From positions 802,501-866,500 of the forward strand of contig NZ_CP041348.1 in the NCBI RefSeq assembly GCF_009834365.1: a DNA stretch of 64,000 nt, given 5' to 3'. The stretch's first letter is position 1, and each line of letters opens with the position of its first letter. Under the pieces are notes generated by a model that was not told the DNA's origin, did not search any database, and saw only the letters and a program-made list of their open reading frames with translations. Position numbers and translations under genes: made by a program. Source of the DNA: Komagataeibacter xylinus (GTDB lineage: Bacteria; Pseudomonadota; Alphaproteobacteria; Acetobacterales; Acetobacteraceae). Of the stretch, positions 5,036 through 63,960 are shown one piece after another.

Positions 5036-5073
5036 AAAGTTTTTGGTGAAGCTTTTTAAAAAAAAGCGGTGCC
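5036..5073. repeat. Two-hairpin intergenic repeat, copy 1 (partial)
   Basis: Only the terminal repeat AAAGTTTTTGGTG and the AAGCTTTTT hairpin half are intact, followed by a remnant GCGGTGCC. Located between the convergent ends of the CHAP gene and rlmH. Confidence 0.8.
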
Positions 5074-5119
5074 TCAGGTCATGTACGCCATTTCTTCATG
5101 ACGACCATACAGGCAGCCT

Positions 5120-5581
5120 TCAGTCAGGGCGCCCCGCACGATGATAGGGATGCCCGGCTGAAATGGCGCGGGCACGATAAAGCTGCTCGGCCAGCATGCC
5201 ACGCACGAGCATGTGCGGCCATGTCATCTTGCCAAGCGAGAGCGTATGGTCGGCACGCTGCACAACAGGGCCATCGAGCCCTTCCGCCCCACCAATGACA
5301 AAACACAGCGGCCTTGGTGTCTCGATCCACTGTTCAACCGCGCGGGAGAAGGCCACGCTGTCGTAGGTGCGGCCACCTTCATCCATGGCGACGACAATGG
5401 CGCGATCGGGCAGGGCTGACAGGATCGCCTGCCCTTCCCTGCGTTTGATCTCGTTGGGCGCACCGCGCCCTTCGGGCAGTTCAACCAACTTGATGCGAGG
5501 CGAAAGCCGGGTGGCGTAACGCTCGAACAGGTCGCGCTCCACCCGGTCCTTCATGCGGCCCACGGCAATCAGGTGAAACAA
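5120..5581 (-). CDS. rlmH: 23S rRNA (pseudouridine-1915-N3)-methyltransferase RlmH
   Basis: 153 residues, the normal length for this SPOUT-class enzyme. It has the family start MFHLIAVGRMKD, the central ERYATRLSP, and the SAM-binding trefoil-knot region CFVIGGAEGLDG, LSLGKMTWPHML and EQLYRA. RlmH methylates pseudouridine 1915 in helix 69 of 23S rRNA on 70S ribosomes. It follows rsfS by only 3 bases in a minus-strand operon (proA-nadD-rsfS-rlmH), a common alphaproteobacterial order. Confidence 0.97.
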   Translation of the reverse strand: MFHLIAVGRMKDRVERDLFERYATRLSPRIKLVELPEGRGAPNEIKRREGQAILSALPDRAIVVAMDEGGRTYDSVAFSRAVEQWIETPRPLCFVIGGAEGLDGPVVQRADHTLSLGKMTWPHMLVRGMLAEQLYRARAISAGHPYHRAGRPD

Positions 5582-5584
5582 GGC

Positions 5585-6226
5585 TTACGCCACCGGGCCT
5601 GCGGGCGCCTCCGGCGGCACGTCGAGGTCATCGCCCCACATACGCTCCAGCCCATAAAGCGCACGGGCTTCAGCCTTGAACAGATGCACCACGATATCGC
5701 CTGCATCAAGCAGCACCCAGTCGGAGCCGGTTGCCCCTTCCGTGCGCACGCGCTTGAGCCCGGCCTCGCCAAGCTTGCGGTCGATATGCGCGGCCATGGC
5801 AGCAATCTGCCGGTCGGCAAGGCCGGTGGCGATCACCATGCGGTCAGCAAAGGAGGCGCGGCCTGTCAGATCGATCACCACGATATCCTCAGCCTTGTCA
5901 TCTTCAAGACTGGTGGTGATGATCTCCAGAAACTGCTCCACGCGCGGGTCAGGCTCACGCGTTTCAGCAGGGGTTGGGCCTGCCACGGCAGCCTTCTTGC
6001 GCGGCGTGCCCGGCACCTGCACGGCACTGCCCAGTGAACCCGTGACGGCACGCGGCGCGGCATGGGGGCTGCCGGTACGGCGCTTGGCGCCACTCTCGGC
6101 TATAGGCTTTCTGGTTATGGCTGTTACTCCCGTCGGCGGCCATGCGCGGCCTGCGATGCACGTATTTCTGTAGCTGATATAGCGTTCTGCGGCGCGGGAA
6201 GAAAGACCCATGCGGGCGGCATGCAT
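5585..6226 (-). CDS. rsfS: Ribosomal silencing factor RsfS (Iojap)
   Basis: The Iojap domain fills the C-terminal 110 residues: EQFLEIITTSLEDDKAEDIV, then FADRMVIATG, DWVLLDAGDIVVHLF and LYGLERMWGD. RsfS binds ribosomal protein L14 and blocks subunit joining in starvation. The start is uncertain. ATG 6226 makes the gene overlap nadD by 103 bases and adds a long basic Ala/Pro-rich leader; the only other plausible in-frame start that avoids nadD is GTG 6022, giving about 145 residues. Neither has a strong ribosome-binding site. Family assignment is secure; the N-terminal 68 residues may not be translated. Confidence 0.9.
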   Translation of the reverse strand: MHAARMGLSSRAAERYISYRNTCIAGRAWPPTGVTAITRKPIAESGAKRRTGSPHAAPRAVTGSLGSAVQVPGTPRKKAAVAGPTPAETREPDPRVEQFLEIITTSLEDDKAEDIVVIDLTGRASFADRMVIATGLADRQIAAMAAHIDRKLGEAGLKRVRTEGATGSDWVLLDAGDIVVHLFKAEARALYGLERMWGDDLDVPPEAPAGPVA

Positions 6227-6768
6227 GTTGCCAGCGTTCCCGCCCTGCGCGCAGGCAGCCGCCAGCGCGCAAGCCTGCGGGCAATCTGGCCGTGCAATGC
6301 GGCAGGATTATAGCCAGGGCGCGGCAATACGGCGAAGGGGGTCATACGCACGATATCGCGCCACCGTCGCCACCGGTTCATCTGCGCCAGCCCATCCGCC
6401 CCCATCAGCCAGACGAAATGCACCTGCGGAAAAAGCTGCCGGAGCCGCGCCAGCGTATCGACCGTATAGCGGGTGCCAATGCGGCTTTCGATATCGGTGG
6501 CCACCAGCCGCCTGCCCGAAACACCATCAATGCGCGCCCGCACCCCTGCCAGCCGCTGCGCCAGGGGAGCCATGCCCGCCACCGGCTTGAGCGGATTGCC
6601 CGGCGAGACAAGGAACCATACCTGATCCAGCCCCAGTTGCCGCAACGCCCGGCAGGCAAGCTGCACATGGCCTTCATGCATCGGGTTGAACGAGCCACCG
6701 AGCAGGCCCACGCGCATGCGCCGCCCGTCCCCATGGGTCGGGATTACAGGCGCCATGCCACCGCGCAC
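6124..6768 (-). CDS. nadD: Nicotinate-nucleotide adenylyltransferase NadD
   Basis: About 210 residues with the nucleotidyltransferase motif MRVGLLGGSFNPMHEGH near the N-terminus, VWFLVSPGNPLK, WLMGADGLAQM, and the C-terminal SATEIRAS motif. NadD makes deamido-NAD from nicotinate mononucleotide and ATP. GTG 6768 opens the frame, but ATG 6756 or ATG 6717 (MRVGLLGG) are also possible. It lies 7 bases after proA and overlaps rsfS if the long rsfS start is used. Glutamine-dependent NAD synthetase, the next enzyme, is encoded at 31274-33334. Confidence 0.95.
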   Translation of the reverse strand: MRGGMAPVIPTHGDGRRMRVGLLGGSFNPMHEGHVQLACRALRQLGLDQVWFLVSPGNPLKPVAGMAPLAQRLAGVRARIDGVSGRRLVATDIESRIGTRYTVDTLARLRQLFPQVHFVWLMGADGLAQMNRWRRWRDIVRMTPFAVLPRPGYNPAALHGQIARRLARWRLPARRAGTLATCMPPAWVFLPAPQNAISATEIRASQAAHGRRRE

Positions 6769-6775
6769 GGCCAGA

Positions 6776-8059
6776 TCAGGGCCGGACCTGCCCCGTGCCG
6801 ATCACCTCGTAGCGGAAGGTGGTGAGTTGCTCGAGCCCGACCGGACCACGGGCATGGAACCGCCCGGTGGCAATGCCGATCTCGGCCCCGAAGCCGAACT
6901 CGCCGCCATCACAGAACTGGGTGGAGGCATTCCACATCACCACCGCGCTATCCGTGCCGTTGAGGAAGGTGGTGGCCGCCTGCGCATCTTCCGTCACGAT
7001 GGCTTCGGTATGGGCGCTGCCATAACGGGCGATATGGGCCAGCGCATCCTCGACGCCATCCACCACGCCCACCGAGAGCACGGCATCAAGCCATTCGGTG
7101 GCGAAATCCGCATCGGTAGCGGCAGGCAGGTCGGGAATGATTGCACGCGCGCGCTCATCGGCGCGGAAGGTGCAGCCACGGGTGGCCAGATCCTCGATCA
7201 GGCCGGGCAGGATCTTTGGCGCAATGGCCTGATCCACCAGCAGGGTCTCGGTGGCGCCACAGATGCCGGGACGGCGCAGCTTGGCGTTGAGCACGATGCG
7301 CCGCGCCATTTCCAGATCAGCCGCCGCATGCACATAGGTGTGGCAAAGCCCTTCGGCATGGGCCAGCACCGGCACGCGGGCCTCGGCACACACGCGCTCG
7401 ACAAGCGACTTGCCGCCACGCGGAATGATGAGGTCGATCAGCCCGGCGGCACCGAGCATGGAGGCCACATGAGCACGATCGGCATCGGGGGGGATCTGCA
7501 CGCATTCAACCGGCAGGCTGGCAGCCGCAAGCCCCGCCTGCATGGCCGTATGAATCACGCGCGCGCTGTTCAGGCTGTCTGACCCGCCGCGCAGGATCAC
7601 GGCATTGCCGGACTTGATGCACAGCGCCGCCGCATCGGCCCCCACATTGGGGCGGCTTTCATAAATCATGCCAATCACGCCCACGGGCGTGGCCACCCGG
7701 CGGATGCGCAGCCCGTTGGGCCGGTCCCACTCCGCCATGATGTGACCCACGGGGTCCGGCAGGGCGGCAATCTGTTCAAGCCCCTGCGCCATGGCCTCGA
7801 CCCGCTCGGGGTTGAGCGTCAGCCGGTCGCGGAATGAAGCCGCCCCGGTAAACGCCGCCACGTCACGCGCATTGGCCGCGAGCAGTTCCGGCTGGGCCGC
7901 GCGCAGGGCTGCGGCGGCGGCGGTCAAGGCCTTGTTGCGGGTTTCTGTCGTGCTGCGGGCCAGCACGCGGGCCGCCGTGCGGGCGGCGAGCGCCATGGTG
8001 CGGATCACGCCCGGCTGCGGTGCGTCGGCCCGCGCGGGGGTTGCAACAGCCTGGTCCAT
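6776..8059 (-). CDS. proA: Glutamate-5-semialdehyde dehydrogenase ProA
   Basis: 427 residues, the normal length. Typical gamma-glutamyl phosphate reductase motifs are seen: [34 protein letters not shown], and the catalytic cysteine in [11 protein letters not shown]. It reduces gamma-glutamyl phosphate to glutamate semialdehyde in proline synthesis. proC, the last step of the pathway, is at 18437-19273. A short hairpin (8088-8104) lies between ychF and proA. It heads the proA-nadD-rsfS-rlmH cluster. Confidence 0.97.
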
Positions 8060-8105
8060 GATCCGTAACTCCCTGATCTATCCCTGAACGGGCACCGTGC
8101 CCGTA

Positions 8106-9200
8106 TCAGACGTTAAAGCGGAACAGCAGGACATCACCATCCTGCACCACGTAATCCCGCCCTTCGATGCGCAGCTTGCCCGCCTCACGGGCACCCGCCT
8201 CGCCATTGCAGGCGATGTAATCATCATATGCAATGGTCTCGCACGCAATGAAGCCCCGCTCGAAATCATTATGGATGACGGCGGCGGCCTGCGGAGCCTT
8301 GGTGCCTTCGGTAATGGTCCAGGCCCGCGTCTCCTTCGGCCCTACGGTGAAGTAGGTGCTCAGGCCCAGCAGGCGGTAGCCTGCGGCAATGACGCGGTCG
8401 AGCCCGCTATCCTTCAGGCCAAGGCCTTCAAGGAACTCGACCCGGTCTTCAGCGCCCAGCTGGCTCACTTCGGCCTCGATCGCGGCGGAGACAACAACCA
8501 TTGCCGCCCCTTCCTCTTCCGCCCGCTTGCGCACGCGCTCGGAAAATTCGTTGCCGGTGGCTGCCGAGGCTTCATCCACGTTGCACACATACAGCACGGG
8601 CTTCGAGGTCATGAGCTGCAGGCGGCGCACTGCCTCCTCCTGCCCCGCCGGGATTGCCTTGCGTGCGGGCAGGCCCTCACGCAGGGCTTCGATCAGCGGC
8701 TCCATCAGTTCAACCTGGGCTGCGGCCTCGCGGTCATTGCCGCGTGCCTTCTTCTGGAGCGCCACGATCCGCTTCTCCAGCGATTCGAGGTCGGCCAGCA
8801 TCAGTTCGGTCTCGATGATCTCGGCATCGCGGATGGGGTCCACGCCACCTTCCACATGGGTGATGTCATCATCTTCAAAGCAGCGCAGCACGTGGATGAT
8901 GGCATCCACCTCGCGGATATTGGCCAGGAACTGGTTGCCCAGTCCCTCCCCGCGCGAGGCACCGCGCACCAGGCCCGCGATATCGACGAATTCGAGGCTG
9001 GTGGGCAGGATCTTCTGTGATTTGCCAATCCGCGCCAGTTCCGCCAGCCGCGCATCGGGCACGGCCACGCGCCCGACATTGGGCTCGATGGTGCAGAACG
9101 GATAGTTCGCGGCCTGCGCCGACGCGGTCTCGGTCAGGGCGTTGAACAGGGTCGATTTGCCCACGTTGGGCAGGCCCACGATGCCACAGTTAAAGCCCAT
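8106..9200 (-). CDS. ychF: Redox-regulated GTP/ATPase YchF
   Basis: 364 residues. The Walker A motif is GLPNVGKSTLF at the N-terminus, with VDIAGLVRGASRGEGLGNQF as switch II and the C-terminal TGS domain ending AGKLRIEGRDYVVQDGDVLL. YchF is an Obg-family ATPase that binds ribosomes and takes part in stress responses. It starts 6 bases after pth, which is the classic pth-ychF operon arrangement; rplY lies upstream on the same strand, completing the common rplY-pth-ychF order. Confidence 0.97.
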   Translation of the reverse strand: MGFNCGIVGLPNVGKSTLFNALTETASAQAANYPFCTIEPNVGRVAVPDARLAELARIGKSQKILPTSLEFVDIAGLVRGASRGEGLGNQFLANIREVDAIIHVLRCFEDDDITHVEGGVDPIRDAEIIETELMLADLESLEKRIVALQKKARGNDREAAAQVELMEPLIEALREGLPARKAIPAGQEEAVRRLQLMTSKPVLYVCNVDEASAATGNEFSERVRKRAEEEGAAMVVVSAAIEAEVSQLGAEDRVEFLEGLGLKDSGLDRVIAAGYRLLGLSTYFTVGPKETRAWTITEGTKAPQAAAVIHNDFERGFIACETIAYDDYIACNGEAGAREAGKLRIEGRDYVVQDGDVLLFRFNV

Positions 9201-9206
9201 ACGCCC

Positions 9207-9779: not shown

Positions 9780-9822
9780 CGTTCAGTCTCCTGTAAGGCG
9801 TTTCGTGGCGGTGGGTGGGCAA

Positions 9823-12399: not shown

Positions 12400-12470
12400 A
12401 GGCGGCTTTTTTCCACAAGCTGCACCAGAACACCGCCTTTTTGGAAAAAGGCGGCACCAAAAAACGTTTA
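12400..12470. repeat. Two-hairpin intergenic repeat, copy 2
   Basis: Degenerate AAGCTT-side half, then AGAACACCGCCTTTTT and AAAAAGGCGGCACC forming the second hairpin, then AAAAAACGTTTATTATT. Located just downstream of the lipoprotein gene stop (12513, minus strand) and upstream of prs. Confidence 0.85.
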
Positions 12471-12512
12471 TTATTCTTTATCAGGGCTCTGTTTTTAAAG
12501 ATTCATTCAAGA

Positions 12513-13499: not shown

Positions 13500-13507
13500 G
13501 GCACCCC

Positions 13508-14299: not shown

Positions 14300-14337
14300 C
14301 AGTGTTTCCCCTCATCCCGTAGCGGACAAATTTATAG

Positions 14338-14409
14338 AAGTTTTTGGGCGCCGTTTTTTTTAAAAGGCCGCGTTCTTCGAAGCTTTAAAAAAAAGCTTCA
14401 CCAAAAAAT
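14338..14409. repeat. Two-hairpin intergenic repeat, copy 3
   Basis: AAGTTTTTGGGCGCCG, a GGCCGCG-side hairpin, GTTCTTCGAAGCTTT, an AAGCTT hairpin and CACCAAAAAATT. Located immediately after the stop of the MidA-like methyltransferase gene (14413, minus strand). Confidence 0.85.
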
Positions 14410-14412
14410 TCC

Positions 14413-15450
14413 TTATGCTGACTGCGGTGCACCACTTCCACGCACTCCCGCAAAACCCGGCAACAGGCCCGTCATGCCCACCGACAGCCCCAGCACGCGA
14501 AACAGCCGCCCCATCTGCTCAGGCGCTGCCAGCCGCCGCGCGGCCGCCCTGATGTCGTGCGCCTGGTCGGGAGCCGCGCGGGCAAGCTGCTCGCAGCGCG
14601 CGCCCAGCCCGAGTGCACCCAAAAAATCGCCCTGCTTCACGCTGCCCCACACATCCACCCCGCCTGCCGCCTGTGCCATGCTGGCAAAATCGACATGAGC
14701 AGTCAGGTCCGCCGTGCCGGGATCACATAACGGATCAACCGGTTGGCCTGCCCGTAGCGCCTGCAGGCTGTCGCCCCAGGCCGGGGCATCGTAACCGTAA
14801 TCAATCAGCAGCGCCGCCCCGCGCCCGCGTTGCAGACGGGCGGCAAGCGTGCTGACAAAATCGAGCGCGGGCTGGCAGGTTTCCAGCACGTCTCCCTCAG
14901 GAACAGACCGCGCCAGAGCCGGGTGGCCAGGAGGCAGAACAGCCGCCTGCTCTACAAAGCGCCCCGCCTGCACAAAGCGCTCCGCCCAGCCCTGCCCATG
15001 GCGCACAAACTGGCGGATGGGCAGCGCATCGACAAACTCGTTGCCCAGCAGGATGAACGGCCCCTCGGGCAGGCTGGCAAGACCGTCATGCCAGTTGACA
15101 GGGGTTGGCGTGGCATCCTTCAAAGCCACTTTCTGGCAGGCTCGCAGGCGGGGCGAGGTCTCGATCAGGTGCACCCGTGCTGCCGCATGGCAGGCAGGGG
15201 CCACCCGGCGCAGCAGGCGCAGGGCATCGGCCATGAGCGTGCCCCGGCCCGGCCCCGCCTCAGCCAGCACGAAAGGAGCGGGGCGGCCAAGCTGCTCCCA
15301 CACCACGGCCACCCATGCGCCCAGCAGTTCACCGAACATCTGCGAGATTTCGGGCGATGTAATGAAATCGGCAAACGGGTCGCGGCCTGCATAATAGGCC
15401 GCGTTGGCCCGCGCCATGAAGTGGTCCAGCCGTTCGGGCTGCCCGGTCAT
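14413..15450 (-). CDS. MidA/NDUFAF7-type class I SAM-dependent methyltransferase
   Basis: 345 residues. DPFADFITSPEISQMFGELL at residues 24-43 and AEAGPGRGTLMAD are diagnostic of PF02636 (Methyltransf_28), the family of human NDUFAF7, which methylates an arginine of complex I subunit NDUFS2. HLIETSPRLRACQ and LLGNEFVDALPIRQF follow. A complex I assembly role is therefore plausible, and an accessory complex I subunit (NDUFA12) is encoded at 37751. ATG 15450 overlaps the lgt stop by 4 bases (ATGA), which decides this start over one at 15561. Confidence 0.9.
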   Translation of the reverse strand: MTGQPERLDHFMARANAAYYAGRDPFADFITSPEISQMFGELLGAWVAVVWEQLGRPAPFVLAEAGPGRGTLMADALRLLRRVAPACHAAARVHLIETSPRLRACQKVALKDATPTPVNWHDGLASLPEGPFILLGNEFVDALPIRQFVRHGQGWAERFVQAGRFVEQAAVLPPGHPALARSVPEGDVLETCQPALDFVSTLAARLQRGRGAALLIDYGYDAPAWGDSLQALRAGQPVDPLCDPGTADLTAHVDFASMAQAAGGVDVWGSVKQGDFLGALGLGARCEQLARAAPDQAHDIRAAARRLAAPEQMGRLFRVLGLSVGMTGLLPGFAGVRGSGAPQSA

Positions 15451-19997: not shown

Positions 19998-20094
19998 CAT
20001 TGATAAAACATAATAAAACTTCTGAGCGCCGCCTTTTTTTTCAAAAAGGCGGCATTCTTTTGGAGCTTTTTGAAAAGAGCTTCCCCAAAAACTT
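19998..20094. repeat. Two-hairpin intergenic repeat, copy 4 (near full length)
   Basis: CATTGATAAAA and ATAAAACTTCTGAGC, then the GCCGCCTTTTT / AAAAAGGCGGC hairpin, ATTCTTTTGG, the AGCTTTTTGAAAAGAGCTT hairpin and CCCCAAAAACTT. Located between the TetR/COQ9-like gene and tRNA-Gln. Confidence 0.9.
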
Positions 20095-20193
20095 CTTTCT
20101 GATGGCCCCGATGTTTCGGGGACAGACTTTTCAAACCGCGCCTGAGATATTAGAACAGCATCACGCCGCGCGAATCGCGTGACGTCAGCCTGT

Positions 20194-20268: not shown

Positions 20269-20344
20269 GTTTCCTTTCTGAAAAAACTGTATGTGACCCT
20301 CCGGTCCGTATTTACGGGAGCGCGAAGGGATCTGCCTGCGCTGG

Positions 20345-20405
20345 AAAATAAAAGTTTTCGGGCGCCACTTTTTTTAAAAAAAGCGGCGTTCTTAAAAGCT
20401 TTTTA
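20345..20405. repeat. Two-hairpin intergenic repeat, copy 5 (partial)
   Basis: AATAAAAGTTTTCGGGCGCC, a degenerate GCC/GGCG hairpin, GTTCTTAAAAGCTTTTT; the final terminal repeat is missing. Between tRNA-Gln and the convergent alpha-E gene. Confidence 0.8.
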
Positions 20406-20415
20406 CCCTTACCCG

Positions 20416-21432
20416 CTACCCGCTACCCGCCACTCGCAGGGCCACCGGGGGCCAGAAAGCATCGGCGATCTCGTTCTGGATCAGCCGCAATTCGCGCTGG
20501 ATCCAGTCCATGTATTCATGCAGGCCGCGCAGGATGATGTCTTCCACCGTCTGTTCGGCCAGTGTCACGCGCAGTTCCTCCACCCGCTCCAGAATCGGCC
20601 CGCAATGGCGTAGCCGGTATTCCCCCGCCAGTGAGCCAAGCACGCTGTAGACACAGCGCAGGCTGGTGGAGAGCGAACGCGGAAACCCGTCATTCTTGAG
20701 CAGGAAGCCCACGATATTGGCAGGCGTCATGCCCTCGGGCAGCACGCGGCGAAAGGCGTGGTAAGCCGCCGCCGAACGCAGAACGGAAGTCCACTGGCTC
20801 AGGTCGATATCCGATCCCACCCCTTCCCCACTGGGCAGCAGGGTGTGGTATTTGATGTCGATCAGCCGCGTGATCTGGTCCGCGCGCTCAAGGTTTTTGC
20901 CCAGCAGGTAGAACAGCCAGGCCTGATCACGGTACAGCGTGCCCTCGGTTATGCCAAAATGGGTCTGGCAGTCCTGCTTGAGCCGCGTGCACAGCGTGGA
21001 CAGATAGCTTGCCCCCACATCATCAGGCCCGAGGTCCATCGCCCAGCGGGTAAACACGTTGAGGTGCATCCACATCTCGGTCGAGATCAGCGGGCGCAGC
21101 ACGCGGGCGTTCTCGCGCACGCACCGCGCCATGGATACGATCGAATCCGGGTTATCGGGGTCAATGATGTAGAATTCGACCACGGTGCGCTCGGTCGCCA
21201 CCTTGTGGCGCAGGAAGAACGTATCCTCATCGGCATTGATGCGGATGACGCTGTCCCATCCCGCATCCATGTTGCTGGCATGCACCGATGTGCCCGTGAC
21301 CTCGATCAGCCGGGCCATGTTCTCGATGCGCTCCATGTAACGCGCCAGCCACATCGTGCTTTCCGCATAACGCGAGAGCAGGTTGCGCAGGCCCGGCAGC
21401 ACCGGGGTGGGAAAAACCGAAAGCTGTGTCAT
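20416..21432 (-). CDS. Alpha-E domain-containing protein (DUF403)
   Basis: 338 residues. LLSRYAESTMWLARYMERIEN and ARLIEVTGT near the N-terminus, then FYLLGKNLERADQITRLIDI, are the conserved helical alpha-E repeats. The protein is all-helical with no known catalytic residues. Alpha-E proteins are encoded with circularly permuted ATP-grasp ligases and transglutaminases in predicted peptide-ligation systems. ATG 21432 overlaps the ATP-grasp stop by 4 bases (ATGA), which fixes the start and shows coupling. Function is inferred from context only. Confidence 0.93.
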   Translation of the reverse strand: MTQLSVFPTPVLPGLRNLLSRYAESTMWLARYMERIENMARLIEVTGTSVHASNMDAGWDSVIRINADEDTFFLRHKVATERTVVEFYIIDPDNPDSIVSMARCVRENARVLRPLISTEMWMHLNVFTRWAMDLGPDDVGASYLSTLCTRLKQDCQTHFGITEGTLYRDQAWLFYLLGKNLERADQITRLIDIKYHTLLPSGEGVGSDIDLSQWTSVLRSAAAYHAFRRVLPEGMTPANIVGFLLKNDGFPRSLSTSLRCVYSVLGSLAGEYRLRHCGPILERVEELRVTLAEQTVEDIILRGLHEYMDWIQRELRLIQNEIADAFWPPVALRVAGSG

Positions 21433-29317: not shown

Positions 29318-29787
29318 CGGAACTGACTACTCCTTCCGGGCTGGAAATGAATTTCGTAAATATCCTGCACCCGTCTTGAAAACAGGCCAGTTGCCCCACC
29401 GGGCCGGACGGTCGCGGCTTGTAACCTGATGACTGAGGTTAGACCAGCAATTTTTTGTTATCACATGAAAATTATCGCTGATATGCGCAGCAATAACCGG
29501 CTGAATTCATAAAATCGCAGTCTTGGGCATCGATATATACGGTCATGAAAACTTCATATCGATAAGGCATCATCAGGAATTGATTTGAAATTAACCCATT
29601 GATGAAAAAAGATAAAATTTTACAGGAATTTTCTTTTTTTAAAAAAAGCCATGTTGTCTGAAGCTTTTTGAAAAAAAGCTTTACCAAAACTTCTTTTAAT
29701 TTGCCGGATCTCGCATCAGCAGGCTGTTCTGACCACCTGCAGGGAAGCGTACAGGCTTGTTGGAGGGGGCGATTCCGCCCCCCGGTG
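29318..29787. other. Intergenic region, HU to RTX-like gene
   Basis: 470 bases, strongly A+T-rich in 29440-29700. It must hold the HU promoter near 29318-29440. Repeat copy 7 occupies 29597-29696. Short open frames here (for example 29472-29687, minus) are made of repeat sequence and are not called. Confidence 0.6.
29597..29696. repeat. Two-hairpin intergenic repeat, copy 7
   Basis: CATTGATGAAAAAAGATAAA, ATTTTACAGG, a degenerate first hairpin rich in T and A, GTTGTCTG, then AAGCTTTTTG / AAAAAAGCTT hairpin and TACCAAAACTTCTTTT. Downstream of the RTX-like gene stop (29788, minus strand). Confidence 0.85.
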
Positions 29788-45033: not shown

Positions 45034-45383
45034 TTGCGTTTCAGGGCTGTAAAACAGAGCCATCTCGCATGCGACGCGCCTGTTCCTTTTCAGTGGCCTG
45101 TCCTCTGTACTTCCAGCCCCCATGCCGCGTGCGCACATAGCACGGTGGGGAGCAGGCCGCAGACGAAGGGTACTGCTACGTGCCGGATCACACACCGGCT
45201 GCTGGCGAAGCATTTTTTCAAAACAGTTTCATGAATGCCGTCTATTTGAAAAACCGCAATAACCAGAGAATTTCTGGAAACGGTTATTTCATAAAGGTAT
45301 AAAAAAATGCCACCTTTTTGAAAAAGGTAGCATTTCAAAAGCTTTGATATTTTTTATCTTAAAAATTGTTCCAGAACAGTTCT
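45034..45383. other. Intergenic region, helicase to exported coiled-coil gene
   Basis: 350 bases between convergent genes. The first 170 bases show nothing I recognise; 45207-45346 is a composite, decayed copy of the two-hairpin repeat. A 60-85 codon frame on each strand here shows no coding character. Confidence 0.5.
45207..45346. repeat. Two-hairpin intergenic repeat, copy 10 (composite, degenerate)
   Basis: GAAGCATTTTTTCAAAACAG and TGAATGCCGTCTATTTG in a decayed first half; then ATGCCACCTTTTTG / AAAAAGGTAGCAT, a clear hairpin, and TTTCAAAAGCTTTG. Two copies may have been inserted here. Between convergent genes. Confidence 0.65.
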
Positions 45384-52672: not shown

Positions 52673-52675
52673 CCG

Positions 52676-52761
52676 GCGATAAAGGCCCGGAGCGCTGCCT
52701 TTATTTTAAAAAAGGCAGCGTTTTCCAAAGCTTTTTGAAAAACGCTTCACCAGAAAATTTT
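52676..52761. repeat. Two-hairpin intergenic repeat, copy 11
   Basis: GGCGATAAAGGCCCGG, the GCTGCCTTTA / AAAAGGCAGC hairpin, GTTTTCCAAAGCTTTTTG, AAAAACGCTT, and CACCAGAAAATTTT. Between the DsbA-fold gene and tRNA-Thr. Confidence 0.85.
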
Positions 52762-52777
52762 CATGATTTTATGGGAA

Positions 52778-52852: not shown

Positions 52853-52974
52853 ATTATAGCACTGCTGCTATACTGTTTCCCCTTTTTGCCGAAATGTCCC
52901 GCACGGTCAAGCAGGGATTCGCGGGACTGAAGACTGCATGAAAAGCCCATGCGGAAAACATCGTGCAAACAGAG

Positions 52975-53071
52975 AAAAGTTTTTGGTGAAGCTTTTTTCA
53001 AAAAGCTTTAAAGAACGCCGCCTTTTTGGAAAAAGGCGACACCCAAAAACTTTTATTATTTATTATCAATG
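52975..53071. repeat. Two-hairpin intergenic repeat, copy 12 (reference copy)
   Basis: AAAAGTTTTTGGTG, AAGCTTTTTTCAAAAAGCTT, TAAAGAAC, GCCGCCTTTTTGG / AAAAAGGCG, ACACCCAAAAACTTTTATT, TATTATCAATG. Both hairpins, both terminal repeats and the outer TTATCAATG are intact. Between tRNA-Thr and the AsmA gene stop. Confidence 0.92.
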
Positions 53072-55429: not shown

Positions 55430-57292
55430 ATGCCCGCCTATCGTTCCCGCACTACGACCCATGGCCGCAACATGGCCGGTGCGCGCAGCCTGTGGCGTGC
55501 AACCGGCATGAAGGATGGCGACTTCGGCAAGCCGATCATCGCCATCGCCAATTCGTTCACGCAGTTCGTGCCCGGCCATGTCCATCTCAAGGATATGGGC
55601 CAGCTTGTGGCGGGCGCCGTGGCCGAGGCCGGTGGCATTGGCCGCGAGTTCAACACCATTGCGGTCGATGACGGCATCGCCATGGGCCATGGCGGCATGC
55701 TGTACAGCCTGCCCTCGCGCGAGCTGATTGCCGATGCGGTGGAATACATGGTCAACGCCCACTGCGCCGATGCGCTGGTGTGCATCAGCAACTGCGACAA
55801 GATCACGCCGGGCATGCTCATGGCGGCGATGCGGCTCAACATTCCCACCATCTTCGTCTCTGGCGGGCCGATGGAAGCGGGCAAGATCCTCAATAACGGC
55901 ACCGAGCAGCAGGTTGACCTCATTACGTCAATGGTGGCGGCGGCCAACTCGGATGTCAGCGATGAGCAGTCGGCCACGATCGAACGTTCCGCCTGCCCCA
56001 CCTGTGGCTCGTGCTCGGGCATGTTCACCGCCAATTCCATGAACTGCCTGACCGAGGCGCTCGGTCTGGCCCTGCCGGGCAATGGCAGCCTTGTCGCCAC
56101 CCATACCGACCGGCGCGAACTGTTCGAGCGCGCGGGCCGCGACATCGTGGCCCTGGCAAAACGGTGGTATGAAAATGATGATGCTACCGCCCTGCCGCGC
56201 GGCATCGCCACCAAACCCGCGTTCGAGAACGCCATGACGGTTGATGTCGCCATGGGTGGCTCGACCAACACCGTGCTGCACCTGCTGGCCGCAGCACATG
56301 AGGGCAAGGTGCCCTTCACCATGGCCGATATCGACCGCCTCTCGCGCCAGGTGCCCAATCTGTGCAAGGTCTCGCCCTCGCGCATGGATATCCATATGGA
56401 GGACGTGCACCGCGCGGGCGGCATTCCCGCCATCATGGGCGAACTGGCCCGTATGGGGCTGCTGAACATGGACGTACCCAGCGTGCATGCAGCCGATCTC
56501 GGCACGGCACTGGCACGGTGGGACATTGACACCAAGACTGCAGATGAAGCGGCCCGCACCTTCTTCCGTGCAGCACCCGGCGGCGTGCGCACCACGCAGG
56601 CATTCTCGCAGTCCAGCCGCTACAGGGCGCTTGATACCGACCGGGCGAATGGCGCGATCCGCGATGCGGAACATGCCTACAGCCGCGATGGCGGGCTGGC
56701 CGTGCTGTTTGGCAACCTGGCTGAAGATGGCGCCATCGTCAAAACCGCTGGCGTGGCTGACAACCTGCTCACCTTCACCGGGCCTGCCCGCATCTTTGAA
56801 AGCCAGGATGCCGCCGTCTCGGCCATTCTGGGCAACGAGATCGTGGCGGGCGACGTGGTGGTGATCCGCTACGAAGGCCCAAAAGGCGGGCCGGGCATGC
56901 AGGAAATGCTGTACCCGACCAGCTACCTCAAATCGAAGGGCCTGGCCGAGAAATGCGCCCTGATTACCGATGGCCGGTTCTCGGGTGGCAGTTCGGGGCT
57001 TTCGATCGGCCATATCTCGCCCGAGGCGGCGGAAGGCGGCATCATCGGCCTGCTTGAGGAAGGGGACACGATCGAGATCGACATCCCCAACCGCATCCTG
57101 CGCACCACCGTAAGCGATGCCACGCTGGCCGCCCGGCGCGACGCCATGGAAGAGCGCGGCGAGCGCGCCTGGCAGCCGGACCGCACGCGCACGGTCTCGG
57201 TCGCACTACAGGCCTATAGCGCGCTGACCACCAGCGCGGCCCGTGGCGCCGTGCGTGATGTCAGCCAGATTGGCCGCCGCACCAGCCGCTGA
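55430..57292 (+). CDS. ilvD: Dihydroxy-acid dehydratase
   Basis: 620 residues, the usual length of the long (E. coli-type) form. Iron-sulfur ligands and motifs: [46 protein letters not shown], and [14 protein letters not shown], followed by [20 protein letters not shown]. It carries out the penultimate step of valine/isoleucine synthesis. ATG 55430 ([20 protein letters not shown]) matches homologues; the frame to 55361 is upstream. A rho-independent terminator at 57303-57338 follows. Confidence 0.97.
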
Positions 57293-57302
57293 ACGGTTCG
57301 GA

Positions 57303-57338
57303 GTACCGCTTCCCTGCAAGGAGGCGGTACCTTTTTTT
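57303..57338 (+). terminator. ilvD terminator
   Basis: GTACCGC (57303-57309) and GCGGTAC (57324-57330) form a stem, followed by CTTTTTTTC. The T-run leads directly into repeat copy 13. Confidence 0.75.
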
Positions 57339-57374
57339 CGAAGCTTTTTGAAAAAAGCTTCACCAGAAACTTTT
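57321..57374. repeat. Two-hairpin intergenic repeat, copy 13 (partial)
   Basis: GGCGGTACCTTTTTTTCG, AAGCTTTTTG / AAAAAAGCTT hairpin, CACCAGAAACTTTTG. Between the convergent ilvD and the small exported gene. Confidence 0.8.
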
Positions 57375-57392
57375 GTTTTTTTAAGGGATACC

Positions 57393-58756: not shown

Positions 58757-58767
58757 CCATCCCCGCA

Positions 58768-58817
58768 AAGTCTGCCAGTACCGTCTTTTTTAAAAAAAGC
58801 TTTACCAGAAAATTTTA
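58768..58817. repeat. Two-hairpin intergenic repeat, copy 14 (partial)
   Basis: AAGTCTGCCAGTACCG, TCTTTTTTAAAAAAAGCTTTA, CCAGAAAATTTT. Between two convergent small genes. Confidence 0.7.
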
Positions 58818-58836
58818 TTACTCTTCTTTTGGTGCG

Positions 58837-59019: not shown

Positions 59020-59088
59020 TGCCCTGTTCCATTAGATGTTTCATGGATAAGCCGCCGTTTTACCAGAACAGATGGATAACACCAGAGC

Positions 59089-59943: not shown

Positions 59944-59948
59944 GAGTG

Positions 59949-60042
59949 CATTGATAAAAAAGATAAAAGTTTTCGAGTGCCGGCTTTTTCAAAAAGCCAG
60001 CGTTCTCTGAAGCTTTTTGAAAAAAGCTTCACCCAAAACTTC
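59949..60042. repeat. Two-hairpin intergenic repeat, copy 15 (near full length)
   Basis: CATTGATAAAAAAGATAAAA, GTTTTCGAGTG, CCGGCTTTTTC / AAAAAGCCAGC hairpin, GTTCTCTG, AAGCTTTTTG / AAAAAAGCTT hairpin, CACCCAAAACTTCT. Reverse orientation relative to copy 12. Follows the endonuclease gene. Confidence 0.9.
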
Positions 60043-60128
60043 TGATTGTTTGTGGGCTGGCTTTTCAACCGGCCGCCGGGAAATATTCCGAATGAGGCCG
60101 TATCCCCTCATTCACAGGAGAGATGACC

Positions 60129-60392
60129 ATGACCGCCCATTCCCCCGCCCTCGTGCCTTTTGCCGATAACAGCGCCAGCCGCACCATTGGCGGCATGACG
60201 GTGGAAAACGGCACCGACAGCATCGCTTTCTATGGCCAGACGGATTTCAGCCGCGACAAGGCCGGTCTGGCACGCGCCCAGGCGCTGCTTACGTTTATGC
60301 AGCAGGTGGTCACAACGCTTGAAGCACAGAAAGACCTGCCCGATGCCCTGCCGCCGCGCAAACCCGCCAAGGTAGACAATCCCTTCATGTAA
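60129..60392 (+). CDS. Conserved small protein, unknown function
   Basis: 87 residues, no signal peptide: MTAHSPALVPFADNSASRTI, GGMTVENGTDSIAFYGQTDF and a helical ARAQALLTFMQQVVTTLEAQ with a basic tail PPRKPAKVDNPFM. Starts ATG 60123 and 60129 are adjacent; 60129 is chosen because AGGAG lies 8 bases before it. No family recognised. A hairpin pair follows the stop. Confidence 0.65.
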   Translation: MTAHSPALVPFADNSASRTIGGMTVENGTDSIAFYGQTDFSRDKAGLARAQALLTFMQQVVTTLEAQKDLPDALPPRKPAKVDNPFM

Positions 60393-60393
60393 A

Positions 60394-60454
60394 AGGGCAT
60401 CCTGCCCTTCCCAAACGCACAACGGGGCCGGTCCATTGCTGGACCGACCCCGTT
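60394..60454. terminator. Convergent terminator between the small gene and rpsI
   Basis: AAGGGCA-TCC-TGCCCTT (60394-60410) and, next to it, AACGGGGCCGGTCCA and TGGACCGACCCCGTT (60421-60454), a 15-base stem with one mismatch. The second is the likely rho-independent terminator for the rplM-rpsI transcript; the first serves the plus-strand gene. Confidence 0.75.
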
Positions 60455-60498
60455 GAAAAACCCGTTCCCCGCGGCACAGGGCTGCGGGAAAATCCGGA

Positions 60499-61002
60499 TC
60501 AGCGCTTGCTGAACTGGAAGGAACGGCGGGCCTTGGCGCGGCCGTACTTCTTACGTTCAACAACACGCGAATCGCGCGTCAGGAAGCCAGCGGCCTTCAG
60601 GATGCTGCGCAGCGCGGGCTCGTAGTGGGTCAACGCACGGCTGATGCCGTGACGGACCGCACCGGCCTGGCCGGACAGACCACCACCAACGACCGTGCAG
60701 TACACGTCGAACTGGTTGTAGCGGTCAGCCACGAGGAAAGGCTGCGTGATCAGCATGCGCAGCACGGGGCGCGCGAAGTAGGTGCCGACCGGACGGCCAT
60801 TGACGATGATATCGCCCTTGCCCGGCTTGATCCACACGCGGGCCACGGCATCCTTACGGCGGCCGGTGGCATAGGCACGGCCCTGCGCATCGCGCTTGGC
60901 TTCGTAAACCGGAGCGGCTTCCTGCGAGGACGTCACCTGACCAGAAGCAACGGCTTCCTTGAGGTCAGCGAGCGTGCCTGTACGTTCTTGGGTTTCAGAC
61001 AT
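60499..61002 (-). CDS. rpsI: 30S ribosomal protein S9
   Basis: 167 residues. The S9 domain is the C-terminal 130 residues: [51 protein letters not shown] and the C-terminal [16 protein letters not shown]. The N-terminal 35-residue extension ([20 protein letters not shown]) is typical of alphaproteobacteria. It follows rplM by 5 bases in the standard rplM-rpsI operon. Confidence 0.98.
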
Positions 61003-61007
61003 ATGGT

Positions 61008-61490
61008 TCAGCCCCCGACCTTCTGGGTGTTGACGGCATTCTTGCGGTTGAGCGATGCAACATCGAGAACCTGCGGCTTCTGCCCCTCATGCGGGTGTTC
61101 GCTGCCGGCATAGACATACAGGTGCTTCATCTGCGCGCGCTGCAGCGGGCCGCGCGTGATCATGCGCTCGATGGCCTTGCGCACGACATGGCCGGGGTTC
61201 TTGCCGGTCAGGCGCTGGGTGATGGTGCGCTCCTTGATCCCGCCGGGGTAGCCGGTGTGATAGTGGAACAGCTTCTGGTCAACCTTGTTGCCGGTCAGGC
61301 GAACCTTCTCGGCGTTGATGATGACGATATTGTCGCCACAATCAACGTGCGGGGTGAACTGCGGCTTGTGCTTGCCGCGCAGGCGCTGGGCAACAATGGC
61401 GGCCAGACGGCCCAGAACGAGGCCCTCGGCGTCGATCAGGGTCCAGCCACGCGTCACCTCGGCGGGCTTCAGCGAAAGTGTGGTCTTCAT
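61008..61490 (-). CDS. rplM: 50S ribosomal protein L13
   Basis: 160 residues: start [20 protein letters not shown], then [40 protein letters not shown], and [21 protein letters not shown]. First gene of the rplM-rpsI operon, with a promoter-like sequence upstream (61535-61564). Confidence 0.98.
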
Positions 61491-61534
61491 GGATCTAGTG
61501 TTCCGTCCAGTAATGTAGCGGTAACAGGTGGCGC

Positions 61535-61564
61535 GTTATCAGCCGCATCATGTGCAAACGTCAA
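61535..61564 (-). promoter_or_regulatory. Promoter candidate for rplM-rpsI
   Basis: TTGACG (61559-61564) and GATAAC (61535-61540) on the minus strand with 18 bases between, a good match to sigma-70 -35 and -10 elements, 45 bases before the rplM start codon. Confidence 0.5.
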
Positions 61565-61612
61565 GCACATAATCCCTTAAGGGCGGCATTTTTCCGCTAA
61601 AAAATCGTGTGT

Positions 61613-61626
61613 GGTATCATGATACC
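61613..61626. promoter_or_regulatory. 14-base palindrome between rplM and the envelope gene
   Basis: GGTATCATGATACC, a perfect palindrome 96 bases upstream of the next gene's GTG start. It may be an operator of the plus-strand gene. A second palindrome CCCTTAAGGG lies at 61574-61583. Confidence 0.3.
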
Positions 61627-61721
61627 GCCATCTTTCGTATCACGACCTTCCCACGGGCGATTGCCGAGGGGGGGCACAATGCGATAGCAGTCAGTTCAAG
61701 GTCATTACGGATATCAGCCTC

Positions 61722-63068
61722 GTGAAGAAACTCTATCCCGCCATTCCCCTGCTTGTTCTTGTGCTGCTGGTTGGCAGCTGGGGGGTGCACCACTTTGCCC
61801 AGCACAGGCTTGAAGCCGGCATAGCCGACTTCCGCGCCTCCATCGGGCCGAACGCCACGTTCAGCTATGCCACGGCCCGGCCGCGCACGCTGGCGCGCGG
61901 CGCGCATTTCACTGCCGTCACCTACCATAACCCCGCCATGACGCTGATCGCGGCTGACGTGCGGCTTGGCGGGCTGACCGGCAACAACGTGCAGGGCGAG
62001 AAAATCGGCAGCATCGTGCTGCGCGATGTCAAGATCATGACCCAGACCAGCTCCATCTCGCTCGATGAGGTGGACCTGCGCAACCTGGTGCTGCCCAATA
62101 CCGACCGCGCGAGCGCCGATGCCAGCCGCCCGCTCGGCTTCGATTCCCTCGTGCTTGATAATGGCACGTTCACCAACATGCATCTCGCCGTGCCCACCAG
62201 CCAGACCGATGTCACCGTCGCCCGCATGACCGTGGAGCAGTACGGAATGGGCCGCACCTCGCATCTCGATCTCGACCGGCTGGCCACCCAGATCAACCTC
62301 ACGCCCACGCGCCGCATCTCGGTCGATCACATCAAGATCGACGGGCCGGATTTTGCCAGCGAGGTCGCAAGCCTGATCCAGTCGGGCCACCTGATCCATG
62401 AAAGCCATCCGCACACGATGAATCTGAAAAAGGTGGAGATCGACAGCACCCACCCCATGCTCCAGATCGACCATGTCGCCACCTCCAGCTTCTCCACCGC
62501 AACGGAGGACAAGATGGACACGACGCTGGGCAATCTTACGCTGTGGTCCACCGGCAATGATAACCAGACGATTCTCAATGCGTTCGGCTATGACCATTTC
62601 AACGGCAACATCCATATCAACAGCACCAGCGACCGCAGTGCCGGGCGCGTGCATCTCGAGCCGATGACCATCGAGTCGGCCGATATGGGCAACCTGACCG
62701 TGGTGGCCGAACTCGACCAGATTCCCTTTGATGACATGGCCATCATTCCCGAGACCGCCCGCATCGTCTCCGCCGCCATGACATGGGAGGATCACTCCCT
62801 TGCCAGCCATGTGCTGGCAGGCCTGGCAAAGAGCCGCAATACCGACCCCGAAATCTACCGCCAGAACCTGCTGGCCTCGCTAGCCGCCTCCGATGATGCC
62901 TCGCTGCGCGCCATGGGCCGGTTCCTGCAATCCCCGCAGGACCACCCGCTGCAGATCGCGCTGCGCCCGATGAAACCGGTCAACCTGATGATGCTGGGTG
63001 TTGCCCTGTCGATGGCGGGCGACCCGTCGGTCGCGGCCCCGCTGGGCCTGACCATTTCCACGCCCTGA
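61722..63068 (+). CDS. Membrane-anchored DUF945/AsmA-like protein, unknown
   Basis: 448 residues. One N-terminal hydrophobic anchor (YPAIPLLVLVLLVGSWGVHH) followed by a large beta-rich domain, for example FRASIGPNATFSYATARP, VTYHNPAMTLIAADVRLGGL and SISLDEVDLRNLVLPN. The overall pattern resembles YdgA (DUF945) and AsmA-like proteins, but no specific motif decides it. The start is GTG 61722. Overlaps the next gene by one base (TGATG), so they form an operon. Confidence 0.65.
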   Translation: MKKLYPAIPLLVLVLLVGSWGVHHFAQHRLEAGIADFRASIGPNATFSYATARPRTLARGAHFTAVTYHNPAMTLIAADVRLGGLTGNNVQGEKIGSIVLRDVKIMTQTSSISLDEVDLRNLVLPNTDRASADASRPLGFDSLVLDNGTFTNMHLAVPTSQTDVTVARMTVEQYGMGRTSHLDLDRLATQINLTPTRRISVDHIKIDGPDFASEVASLIQSGHLIHESHPHTMNLKKVEIDSTHPMLQIDHVATSSFSTATEDKMDTTLGNLTLWSTGNDNQTILNAFGYDHFNGNIHINSTSDRSAGRVHLEPMTIESADMGNLTVVAELDQIPFDDMAIIPETARIVSAAMTWEDHSLASHVLAGLAKSRNTDPEIYRQNLLASLAASDDASLRAMGRFLQSPQDHPLQIALRPMKPVNLMMLGVALSMAGDPSVAAPLGLTISTP

Positions 63069-63934
63069 TGCCCTGCTCCGGCCCCGTGCATGTCATCGGG
63101 GCCAATGGCCGCTCGGGGCTGGCGCTGTGCCGGGCGCTGCAGGCCGGGGGCCGCGATATCGTGCCCATCGTGCGCGACATCGCGCGCTGGCAGGCAACCT
63201 GCCTGCCCGTTCCTGCCCGGCTGGCCGACCTTGCGCATGACCCCGCCCGCCTGCGTCACGCCCTGCGTGATGCCACCACCATTGTCCTGACCGCCCATGC
63301 CCGCCACCTGCCCGCAGTAATCGCGGCGGCTCCGCCACAGGCCCGACTCGTGGCATTGGGCAGCACGCGCATCTTTACCCGCTGGCCCGATACCCATGCG
63401 CGCGGCGTGCTGCACGGCGCGCAGGCGCTGGCCCGCTCGGGCCGCGATGGCGTGCTGCTGCACCCCACCATGATCTATGGCGCAACGGGCGAGAACAATG
63501 TGCAGCGTCTGGCCGCCCTGATGCGCCGCCTGCCGCTACTGCCGCTACCGGATGCCGGGCGCGCACGGCTCCAGCCCATCTGGCAGGGCGACGTAACCCG
63601 TGCGCTGCTCGCCGCCATCGGGCGCGACTGGCATGGGCCACAAAGTCTGATTATCGCAGGGGGGGATCAGGTCAGCTACCGGGATTTTACGCGCATGGTG
63701 GCCATAGCCGCCGGGCTGAGGCCGCGCCCGGTGCTGCCGGTGCCGGGTGCCGTGCTGATGGTGCTGGCGCGGCTCAGGCTACCCGGCCTGCCCGTCATTA
63801 CGCCTGCCGAGATCCGGCGCCTCATGGAAGACAAGATTTTCGATATTGCTCCCATGCGCACGCAGCTCGGCCTTACGCCGCTACCGCTTGCGGCGGGACT
63901 TGCGCGCACGTTCAGACCGGCGGCTTTCTGCTGA
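63068..63934 (+). CDS. NAD(P)-binding epimerase-like (atypical SDR) protein
   Basis: 288 residues, extended/atypical SDR: VHVIGANGRSGLALCRALQ as the Rossmann loop near residue 8, LVALGSTRIFTRWPD, and LHPTMIYGATGENNVQR in place of the usual YxxxK loop. Similar proteins are NAD(P)H-binding epimerase-like proteins of varied function, often complex I assembly factors (NDUFA9-type); here no more can be said. The stop codon lies inside repeat copy 16. Confidence 0.8.
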   Translation: MPCSGPVHVIGANGRSGLALCRALQAGGRDIVPIVRDIARWQATCLPVPARLADLAHDPARLRHALRDATTIVLTAHARHLPAVIAAAPPQARLVALGSTRIFTRWPDTHARGVLHGAQALARSGRDGVLLHPTMIYGATGENNVQRLAALMRRLPLLPLPDAGRARLQPIWQGDVTRALLAAIGRDWHGPQSLIIAGGDQVSYRDFTRMVAIAAGLRPRPVLPVPGAVLMVLARLRLPGLPVITPAEIRRLMEDKIFDIAPMRTQLGLTPLPLAAGLARTFRPAAFC

Positions 63935-63960
63935 AAGCCGCACCAGAAAACGTTTTTATT
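63919..63960. repeat. Two-hairpin intergenic repeat, copy 16 (partial, overlaps a stop codon)
   Basis: GCGGCTTTC (63920-63928) - TGCT - GAAAGCCGC (63933-63941), a 9-base perfect hairpin whose loop includes the TGA stop of the SDR-like gene (63932-63934), followed by ACCAGAAAACGTTTTTATTTT. Possibly the remains of a copy that inserted at the gene end. Confidence 0.6.

What the first reader, a model, noticed from the sequence alone, without database searches (positions are those of the whole stretch)
5036..63960. A two-hairpin intergenic repeat family with about sixteen copies, all placed at gene ends
Sixteen full or partial copies share terminal inverted repeats AAAAGTTTTTGGTG / CACCAAAAACTTTT, an AAGCTTTTT-type hairpin, a connector like AAGAAC or GTTCTT, and a GCCGCCTTTTT / AAAAAGGCGGC hairpin. 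The GCC side often extends to CATTGATAAAA (copies 4, 7, 12, 15). Full copies are about 95-100 bases. Copies 8, 9 and 12 run hairpin A then B; copies 3, 4, 7, 11 and 15 run B then A, so the element is inserted in both orientations. Each copy lies after at least one stop codon or tRNA 3' end, and none is inside a gene. The layout suggests a non-autonomous mobile element or REP-like family that now supplies terminators; the transposase that moved it is not in this window. I do not know whether it has been formally named.
Basis: partly seen in the sequence, partly recalled or inferred. Interest (0 to 1): 0.8.

Follow-up and report, generated by a model that had tools for sequence, protein, structure and literature searches.

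The report
Paired-hairpin repeats at gene ends
A short DNA repeat made of two mirrored hairpins sits just after genes at an estimated couple of hundred places in this vinegar-bacterium genome; it resembles the known REP palindromes but carries a different tag, and the transposase that usually goes with them was not found in its genus, so what spread it is open.

Summary
A covariance model finds 12 clear and 3 weaker copies in the window; two more degraded copies show only as repeats. In a 0.84-Mb sample, 67 copies: none mainly inside a gene, 35 convergent, 28 tandem, 1 divergent, 3 at edges; median 4 nt from a stop. Each element is two inverted copies of one unit: tag AAAAGTTTTTGG, then a hairpin with a constant T6CA5 core and a variable stem. 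This is the published head-to-head REP heterodimer/REPIN plan, but the tag is neither GTAG nor CGTC, and Y1 (RAYT) transposase was not found in 19 of 19 genus genomes. No target duplication was detected. Copies share sites with sister species, sometimes flipped in place, and diverge somewhat less than noncoding flanks, so selection is not excluded. Canonical terminator function is not supported. The architecture with other stems occurs in 22 of 102 Acetobacteraceae genera sampled; single units with the same tag and core also occur in Clostridia, Desulfoluna and Aminicenantes. New variant of a known kind; mobiliser unknown.

The parts
5035..5067 (+). copy 1, degraded A unit only (tag AAAGTTTTTGGTG plus remnant hairpin), between convergent genes
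   Evidence: family D7; sister-species counterparts; not found by R1
12402..12472 (+). copy 2, degraded A plus good B hairpin
   Evidence: R1 35 bits over 12402-12455; right end read
14330..14416 (-). copy 3, full, B then A
   Evidence: R1 70.4 bits; reduced to a hybrid hairpin in G132 and G136, full in G125
20008..20100 (-). copy 4, full, with CATTGATAAAA extension at the B end (19998 on)
   Evidence: R1 73.3 bits; orthologous in G132 and G136
20344..20428 (-). copy 5, B unit plus truncated A, downstream of tRNA-Gln
   Evidence: R1 37.2 bits
25158..25217 (-). copy 6, hybrid hairpin (B 5' arm joined to A 3' arm)
   Evidence: R1 20.7 bits, E 0.017; full copy in G132, none in G136
29608..29699 (-). 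copy 7, full but with a diverged B stem
   Evidence: R1 53.3 bits
41729..41820 (+). copy 8, full, A then B
   Evidence: R1 78.3 bits
42928..43019 (+). copy 9, full, A then B
   Evidence: R1 66.2 bits
45190..45269 (-). copy 10a, degraded
   Evidence: R1 15.6 bits, E 0.32; chance level on its own
45261..45351 (+). copy 10b, B hairpin with diverged A
   Evidence: R1 29.4 bits; G136 and G125 keep the B hairpin and B end at this site
52674..52765 (-). copy 11, full, between a CDS end and the 3' end of tRNA-Thr
   Evidence: R1 53.6 bits; aligned in 8 relatives (A end disrupted in one), with B stem GCTGCC/GGCAGC here and CACCGCC/GGCGGTG in G128
52971..53060 (+). copy 12, full, near consensus
   Evidence: R1 104.1 bits; present in 6 close relatives, absent in G131 and G128
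57310..57378 (-). copy 13, hybrid hairpin between convergent genes (R1 match spans 57285-57378)
   Evidence: R1 56.3 bits
58760..58823 (-). copy 14, degraded hybrid
   Evidence: families D1 and D3; counterparts in G136 and G125; not found by R1
59959..60047 (-). copy 15, full, with CATTGATAAAA extension from 59949
   Evidence: R1 89 bits
63915..63960 (+). copy 16, B-like hairpin with one terminal arm
   Evidence: sequence read; R1 only 12.8 bits, E 1.6

Best explanation
A REP-like family of dispersed palindromic DNA. The building block is one unit: a constant tag (AAAAGTTTTTGG, often followed by TG) directly 5' of a hairpin whose T6-C-A5 core is constant and whose stem varies (GAAGC in unit A, GCCGCC in unit B). 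The about 90-bp element is two such units head to head, tags outside, so a single strand can fold as a three-way junction. The family multiplied through the genome in ancestors of these species, presumably mobilised in trans by an enzyme that is not a Y1/RAYT transposase. It settles at, or survives almost only at, gene ends close to the stop codon. After arrival copies drift, lose hairpins by deletion between their repeated parts, and now and then flip in place between their inverted ends. At the RNA level each copy gives the upstream mRNA, and both mRNAs at convergent pairs, a strong 3' hairpin; a barrier to 3' exonuclease after Rho-dependent ends is the likely side effect. Shown here: anatomy, copy number, placement, shared sites, divergence, no detectable target duplication, no Y1 gene found in the genus. 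Inferred: transposition, the unknown enzyme, the RNA effect.
For: Anatomy and consensus. RNA fold of the typed consensus -38.9 kcal/mol, z -8.0, three-way junction. At least 150 copies, cap reached; 55 in 780 kb of chromosome sample outside the window, about 250 by extrapolation. Placement: 0 of 67 mainly inside genes, 1 of 64 typed copies divergent although 32% of intergenic slots are divergent (binomial 5e-10), 60 of 65 within 60 nt of a stop. Paralogues are nearly as alike (means 84-86%) as orthologues (means 87-90%), and the orthologue beats the best paralogue in only 6 of 26 pairs, as after a fairly recent multiplication. One copy in G128 lies at a convergent junction where own and eight other genomes have only a short gap. 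Y1_Tnp: 0 of 19 genus genomes at E 0.001, while 5 of 14 control genomes match. Other genera keep tag and core and change stems on both sides (12 of 32 pairs, 0 of 500 shuffles). Two-unit matches in G020 are also at gene ends (15 of 15 tandem or convergent, one weaker match of 16 dropped).
Against: No transposition event was seen. The G128-specific copy lies in about 170 nt of extra sequence without duplicated flanks. Five of the six G128 copies lie in gaps where own also has a copy or a remnant (with copy 14), so most copies are old and stay. Copies are somewhat more conserved than noncoding flanks (89.5% against 85.0% without gaps, 87.9% against 75.2% with gaps as differences; 26 pairs), though more so in only 13 pairs against 7, and pairs were picked for good scores on both sides. 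No autonomous relative and no enzyme was found; only the Y1 family was searched. The near-identical consensus in another genus (G073, up to 112.9 bits) needs either continuing activity or constraint.
Confidence: 0.55

Rival explanations
1. Functional bidirectional gene-end element: a non-canonical terminator or 3' stability element kept by selection at each site and used by both genes of convergent pairs.
For: Extreme gene-end placement, median 4 nt from a stop; 34 of 87 convergent gaps of 40 nt or more carry a copy; very strong symmetric RNA fold; paired stems kept across genera; retained at the same sites in sister species; somewhat more conserved than noncoding flanks.
Against: Only 16 of 67 copies fit a hairpin-plus-T-tract rule, and convergent ends with and without a copy have separate canonical terminators equally often (12 of 68, 20 of 106). 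One copy lies between two canonical terminators (site C1:907555). Pair retention inside the genus is hardly above shuffled columns (91.8% against 91.1%), and hairpins are lost by deletion at some sites.
Confidence: 0.3
2. MITE of a DDE transposon: a deletion derivative with 12-14 bp terminal inverted repeats, moved by a transposase elsewhere in the genome.
For: Terminal inverted repeats, both orientations, many copies.
Against: No clear target-site duplication at 10 boundary offsets (34 of 54 copies given had both ends anchored; largest excess 3 observed against 1.3 expected). The constant tag recurs with single hairpins and other stems in other genera and phyla, which suits a tag-plus-hairpin unit better than terminal repeats.
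Confidence: 0.1
3. DNA-level element: a cruciform or A-tract site between genes for a nucleoid protein or topoisomerase, as proposed for E. coli BIMEs (recalled).
For: Convergent gaps are over-represented (35 of 64 typed copies against 15% of slots); palindromic with A/T tracts.
Against: Convergent excess also follows from simple avoidance of promoters; no binding evidence could be sought here.
Confidence: 0.1

Closest known systems
REP head-to-head heterodimers (GTAG- and CGTC-tagged palindromes, PMC3733652; abstract and passages seen)
   Same: Short hairpins with a conserved tag at one end, single or paired with tags outside, partners with different stems, many copies, close to or overlapping gene ends; the paper says CGTC repeats apparently lack a dedicated transposase.
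   Different: The tag here is AAAAGTTTTTGG, neither GTAG nor CGTC; the hairpin core T6CA5 is constant. The paper states that CGTC repeats are missing in Acetobacteraceae.
REPINs with RAYT (PMC3116915; abstract and passages seen)
   Same: Two inverted REP units act as one dispersed unit, with hairpin or 'clover' folds.
   Different: No Y1_Tnp gene found in 19 of 19 genus genomes, nor in G020, G119 and G073.
Bacterial MITEs
   Same: Short, non-coding, terminal inverted repeats, both orientations.
   Different: No target duplication detected and no parent element found (not searched for systematically).
Intrinsic terminators
   Same: Stable hairpins after stop codons.
   Different: T tracts lie mostly inside the 5' arms of the hairpins; 51 of 67 copies fail the rule on both strands.

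Membership tests
REP / REPIN-RAYT | short palindromic unit with a conserved tag at one end | tested here: met
   constant tag 5' of hairpin
REP / REPIN-RAYT | units paired in inverted orientation, tags outside | tested here: met
REP / REPIN-RAYT | tag is GTAG or CGTC | tested here: not met
   alignments: tag position reads AAAAGTTTTTGG
REP / REPIN-RAYT | RAYT (Y1_Tnp, PF01797) in the genome | tested here: not met
   0 of 19 genus genomes; 0 in G020, G119, G073, Acetobacter musti and an Asaia-labelled bin, but matches in the other 7 of 12 genomes (Clostridia-type, Aminicenantes, Acidiphilium, Roseomonas weakly), all holding single units. In the 10 Y1 loci read, one (Acidiphilium, L314) has a near-full unit about 0.9 kb away, the rest none
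REP / REPIN-RAYT | high copy number, extragenic | tested here: met
REP / REPIN-RAYT | excision or transposition intermediates | not testable with these tools
   needs population sequencing
MITE of a DDE element | terminal inverted repeats | tested here: met
MITE of a DDE element | target-site duplication | tested here: not met
   no clear excess at offsets 4-13, lengths 2-8, in 34 copies; none visible at the absent sites, whose flanks are diverged
MITE of a DDE element | autonomous element with the same ends | not tested
   no search for DDE transposases flanked by these ends was made
Intrinsic terminator | G+C-rich hairpin directly followed by a T tract | tested here: not met
   51 of 67 copies fail on both strands, 16 pass on one or both; not above shuffles
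Intrinsic terminator | RNA 3' ends at the element | not testable with these tools
   no transcript data
Any Rfam family | match at gathering score | tested here: not met
   window: three tRNAs only; 11 loci: none

The most novel reading that the evidence does not exclude
A third superfamily of tagged palindromic repeats, beside GTAG and CGTC REPs, defined by the tag AAAAGTTTTTG and a CTTTTTTCAAAAAG hairpin core with genome-specific stems, spread over several phyla (Acetobacteraceae, Clostridia, Desulfoluna, Aminicenantes), used singly, paired tags-out or paired tags-in, and moved by an undescribed non-Y1 enzyme that reads tag and core while tolerating any paired stem. Acetobacteraceae pair the units into gene-end elements that flip in place.
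Probability: 0.35. Interest if true: 0.82.

Novelty: new variant of a known kind. Interest (0 to 1): 0.6.

Why it matters
REP/REPIN biology is built largely on the pairing of GTAG repeats with RAYT transposases. A well-populated, REPIN-shaped family with another tag, in a bacterial family for which the 2013 survey reports no CGTC repeats, and with no Y1 transposase found in the genus, makes the question 'what spreads such repeats?' testable in culturable bacteria. If the cross-phylum single units are the same thing, the class is far wider. For annotation and strain engineering in cellulose-producing Komagataeibacter, these copies mark gene ends and are places of small deletions and flips.

Tried and rejected
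Canonical terminator reading: rejected as main explanation. DDE-type MITE: no duplication. RAYT system: no Y1 gene found in the genus; in unit-bearing genomes that do have Y1 genes, 10 loci were read and only one Acidiphilium locus has a near-full unit, about 0.9 kb away, which may be coincidence. Known RNA: none in Rfam. Phage records: no match. The RNAalifold consensus was replaced by a hand-written three-way junction; within-genus covariation is weak, partly because 30 of the 37 rows were chosen as the most similar to one copy. The class-wide R2 search found only the own genome (1 of 289), so the two-unit form looks confined to the family, at stricter filters that lose weak matches. Orientation of copies relative to tandem genes: 19 opposite, 9 same, not convincing. 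Outer flanks beyond the tags do not covary. Control against the single-unit argument: among the same 80 loci, T6CA5 cores without the tag also mostly sit in longer stems (26 of 30). Literature for a name or description: (listings seen) gave none for this repeat; the library holds open-licence papers only. PMC4686929 (passages) mentions MITEs and REPs only in general.
Full report
1. The observation. The repeats are real and far beyond chance. A covariance model of 37 copies (R1) re-finds 12 copies at 29 bits or more and one more at E 0.017; the remaining ones are degraded pieces, two of which (copies 1 and 14) the model misses. An evenly spaced sample of 39 stretches of 20 kb of C1 gives 55 further copies at 25 bits or more, that is about 250 on C1 by extrapolation; 20 kb of C2 gave none. 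BLAST of one copy against plasmid records hits five Komagataeibacter records and one Novacetimonas record, nothing else.

2. Anatomy. The A-B consensus reads ATAAAAGTTTTTGGTGAAGCTTTTTTCAAAAAGCTTC-connector-GCCGCCTTTTTGAAAAAAGGCGGCACCCAAAAACTTTTAT. Read from both ends it is one unit twice: tag AAAAGTTTTTGG(G)TG, stem, core CTTTTTTCAAAAAG, stem; stem GAAGC in unit A and GCCGCC in unit B. As RNA it folds at -38.9 kcal/mol (z -8.0) as a three-way junction, and equally well on the other strand (-39.3, z -7.9). Deletions follow the internal repeats: B 5' arm fused to A 3' arm (copies 6, 13, 14; site e3 in G132 and G136), or loss of hairpin A at GAAG/CTTTTAT (G132 opposite own C1:874687). A longer B-side tail with CATTGATAAAA is present in a minority of copies and was seen on the A side in none of 97 rows.

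3. Place. With home-made gene calls, of 67 copies none has more than 60% of its length inside a gene (the largest overlap is 32 nt), 35 lie between convergent genes, 28 between tandem genes, 1 between divergent genes and 3 at stretch edges; of 65 with a neighbouring stop, 60 lie within 60 nt, median 4. If copies were spread evenly over intergenic slots, 32% would be divergent and 15% convergent (binomial 5e-10 and 2e-13; the stop-distance binomial there used 66 trials, the counted number being 65). 34 of 87 convergent gaps of at least 40 nt hold a copy. In another genus (G020, 400 kb) 15 two-unit matches are 11 tandem and 4 convergent, none divergent or intragenic, 13 within 60 nt of a stop, median 15; several are weak (E up to 0.019) and the weakest of the 16 places (E 0.035) was left out. 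Single units are less strict: in other Acetobacteraceae-type loci 35 tandem, 20 convergent, 10 divergent, 6 at edges and 2 inside genes of 73; in Ruminococcus RUG10751 8 tandem, 3 convergent, 5 divergent of 16.

4. Terminator or not. My rule for intrinsic terminators fires at 0 of 101 divergent control gaps without a copy, at 20 of 106 convergent ends without a copy and 12 of 68 with one (copy masked), at 15 of 273 tandem ends without and 0 of 28 with one, and on the copy itself in 16 of 67. The scan tool finds no excess in two 20-kb regions, although it flags three window copies. One copy sits between two textbook terminators of convergent genes (site C1:907555). A branched or weak terminator, or an exonuclease stop after Rho-dependent ends, is not excluded.

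5. History. Against two sister species at about 92% identity, of own copies at 40 bits or more with synteny, 18 of 18 are matched in G136 and 13 of 16 in G132; 2 and 1 of these are inverted (1 and 3 more had no synteny). The other way round, 17 of 19 G136 copies and 13 of 14 G132 copies are matched in own. At C1:907555 the flip is bounded by the tags while the rest of the site aligns; the other flipped case (G136) is also truncated. In 26 ortholog pairs the mean identities are 87-90% for orthologues and 84-86% for paralogues, and the orthologue beats the best paralogue in 6 of 26. A fair recount gives, without gaps, 89.5% for copies, 85.0% for noncoding flank and 90.8% for coding flank; with gaps as differences 87.9%, 75.2% and 89.9%. 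Copies are the more conserved in 13 pairs and the less in 7 (15 and 10 of 33 pairs at a lower score limit). The pairs were picked for good scores, which inflates the copies. So copies drift, perhaps under mild constraint, and the family multiplied not long before these species split (inference). In the more distant G128 (flank identity about 71-92%), 9 window sites were examined because one search had hinted at shorter gaps: 7 show no copy, e5 keeps a B hairpin and e15 is unclear. G128 has 6 model matches in 67 kb: four map to gaps where own has a copy, one to the gap of degraded copy 14, and one (74.1 bits) to a convergent junction where own and eight other genomes have only a short gap. No target duplication was detected.

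6. Distribution. R1 matches 17 of 120 family genomes, 14 of 102 genera. Copies from other genera keep tag and core but change stems. In A4 (14 rows from 6 genomes of 5 genera, chosen from R1 hits) 12 of 32 pairs change on both sides, none of 500 shuffles reach that, and slid controls reach at most 5; the count of further pair types does not exceed shuffles (21 against 21.2). Related rows can beat such shuffles without structure. Model R2 from these matches 37 of 200 family genomes, 22 of 102 genera (several with only 1-3 matches near the limit), and only the own genome among 289 of the class. By record titles 71 of these 120 are labelled Acetobacteraceae, its genera or Rhodospirillales; the others include Ruminococcus, Acutalibacter, Anaerotignum, Oscillospiraceae, Aminicenantes, Cloacimonadota, Acidobacteria and Desulfoluna. 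Among the 80 loci examined, stems of at least 4 pairs follow in 72 of 79 units of the first group and 36 of 38 of the second; cores without the tag in the same loci also have such stems in 26 of 30, so the stem is tied to the core rather than to the tag. Exact counts per genome run from 0 (G040) and 1 (Anaerotruncus colihominis) to 587 (Ruminococcus RUG10751), with 0 for the reversed pattern in all 22 genomes counted; Desulfoluna spongiiphila has 14. RUG10751 units occur in part as tags-in pairs about 50 bp apart. Many distant hits are metagenome bins and may be contaminated, so common descent is open.

7. Comparison. PMC3733652 (abstract and passages) describes GTAG and CGTC repeats as single units or dimers, including head-to-head heterodimers with different stems, some overlapping gene ends, notes that CGTC repeats apparently lack a dedicated transposase, and says they are missing in Acetobacteraceae. 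PMC3116915 (abstract and passages) defines REPINs as inverted REP doublets linked to RAYTs, with hairpin or clover folds. The present family looks like these, but the tag differs and Y1_Tnp was not found in 19 of 19 genus genomes while 5 of 14 control genomes match. I therefore file it as REP-like, a new variant, not as a REPIN-RAYT member. No name or description was found in the searches.

Noticed in passing
L183, L224, L229 (Ruminococcus RUG10751): 587 exact tag-plus-core units in a 2.4-Mb bin, partly as tags-in pairs with about 50 bp between, followed by further G+C hairpins (GGGGC..GCCCC); not analysed further.
   Followed up: partly
L087 about 4650-4810 (G135), against window 52750: Roughly 130-150 nt of unrelated sequence replaces the A end of copy 11 in this relative, like an insertion-sequence end or remnant.
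   Followed up: no
L139 about 5460-5510 (G136), opposite window copy 10: A third hairpin CTGTTTTCAAAAAACTTTTTGAAAACAG lies next to the B-side CATTGATAAAA tail, perhaps another unit type joined to the element.
   Followed up: no
L314 (Acidiphilium rubrum, G507:C39): A Y1-transposase reading frame of 258 aa lies roughly 0.9 kb from a near-full tag-plus-hairpin unit.
   Followed up: partly
   Followed up: no
G508 (bin labelled Asaia bogorensis), G509 (Roseomonas sp. GC11): 180 and 206 exact single units, more than in the three Komagataeibacter genomes counted the same way (41-52).
   Followed up: no
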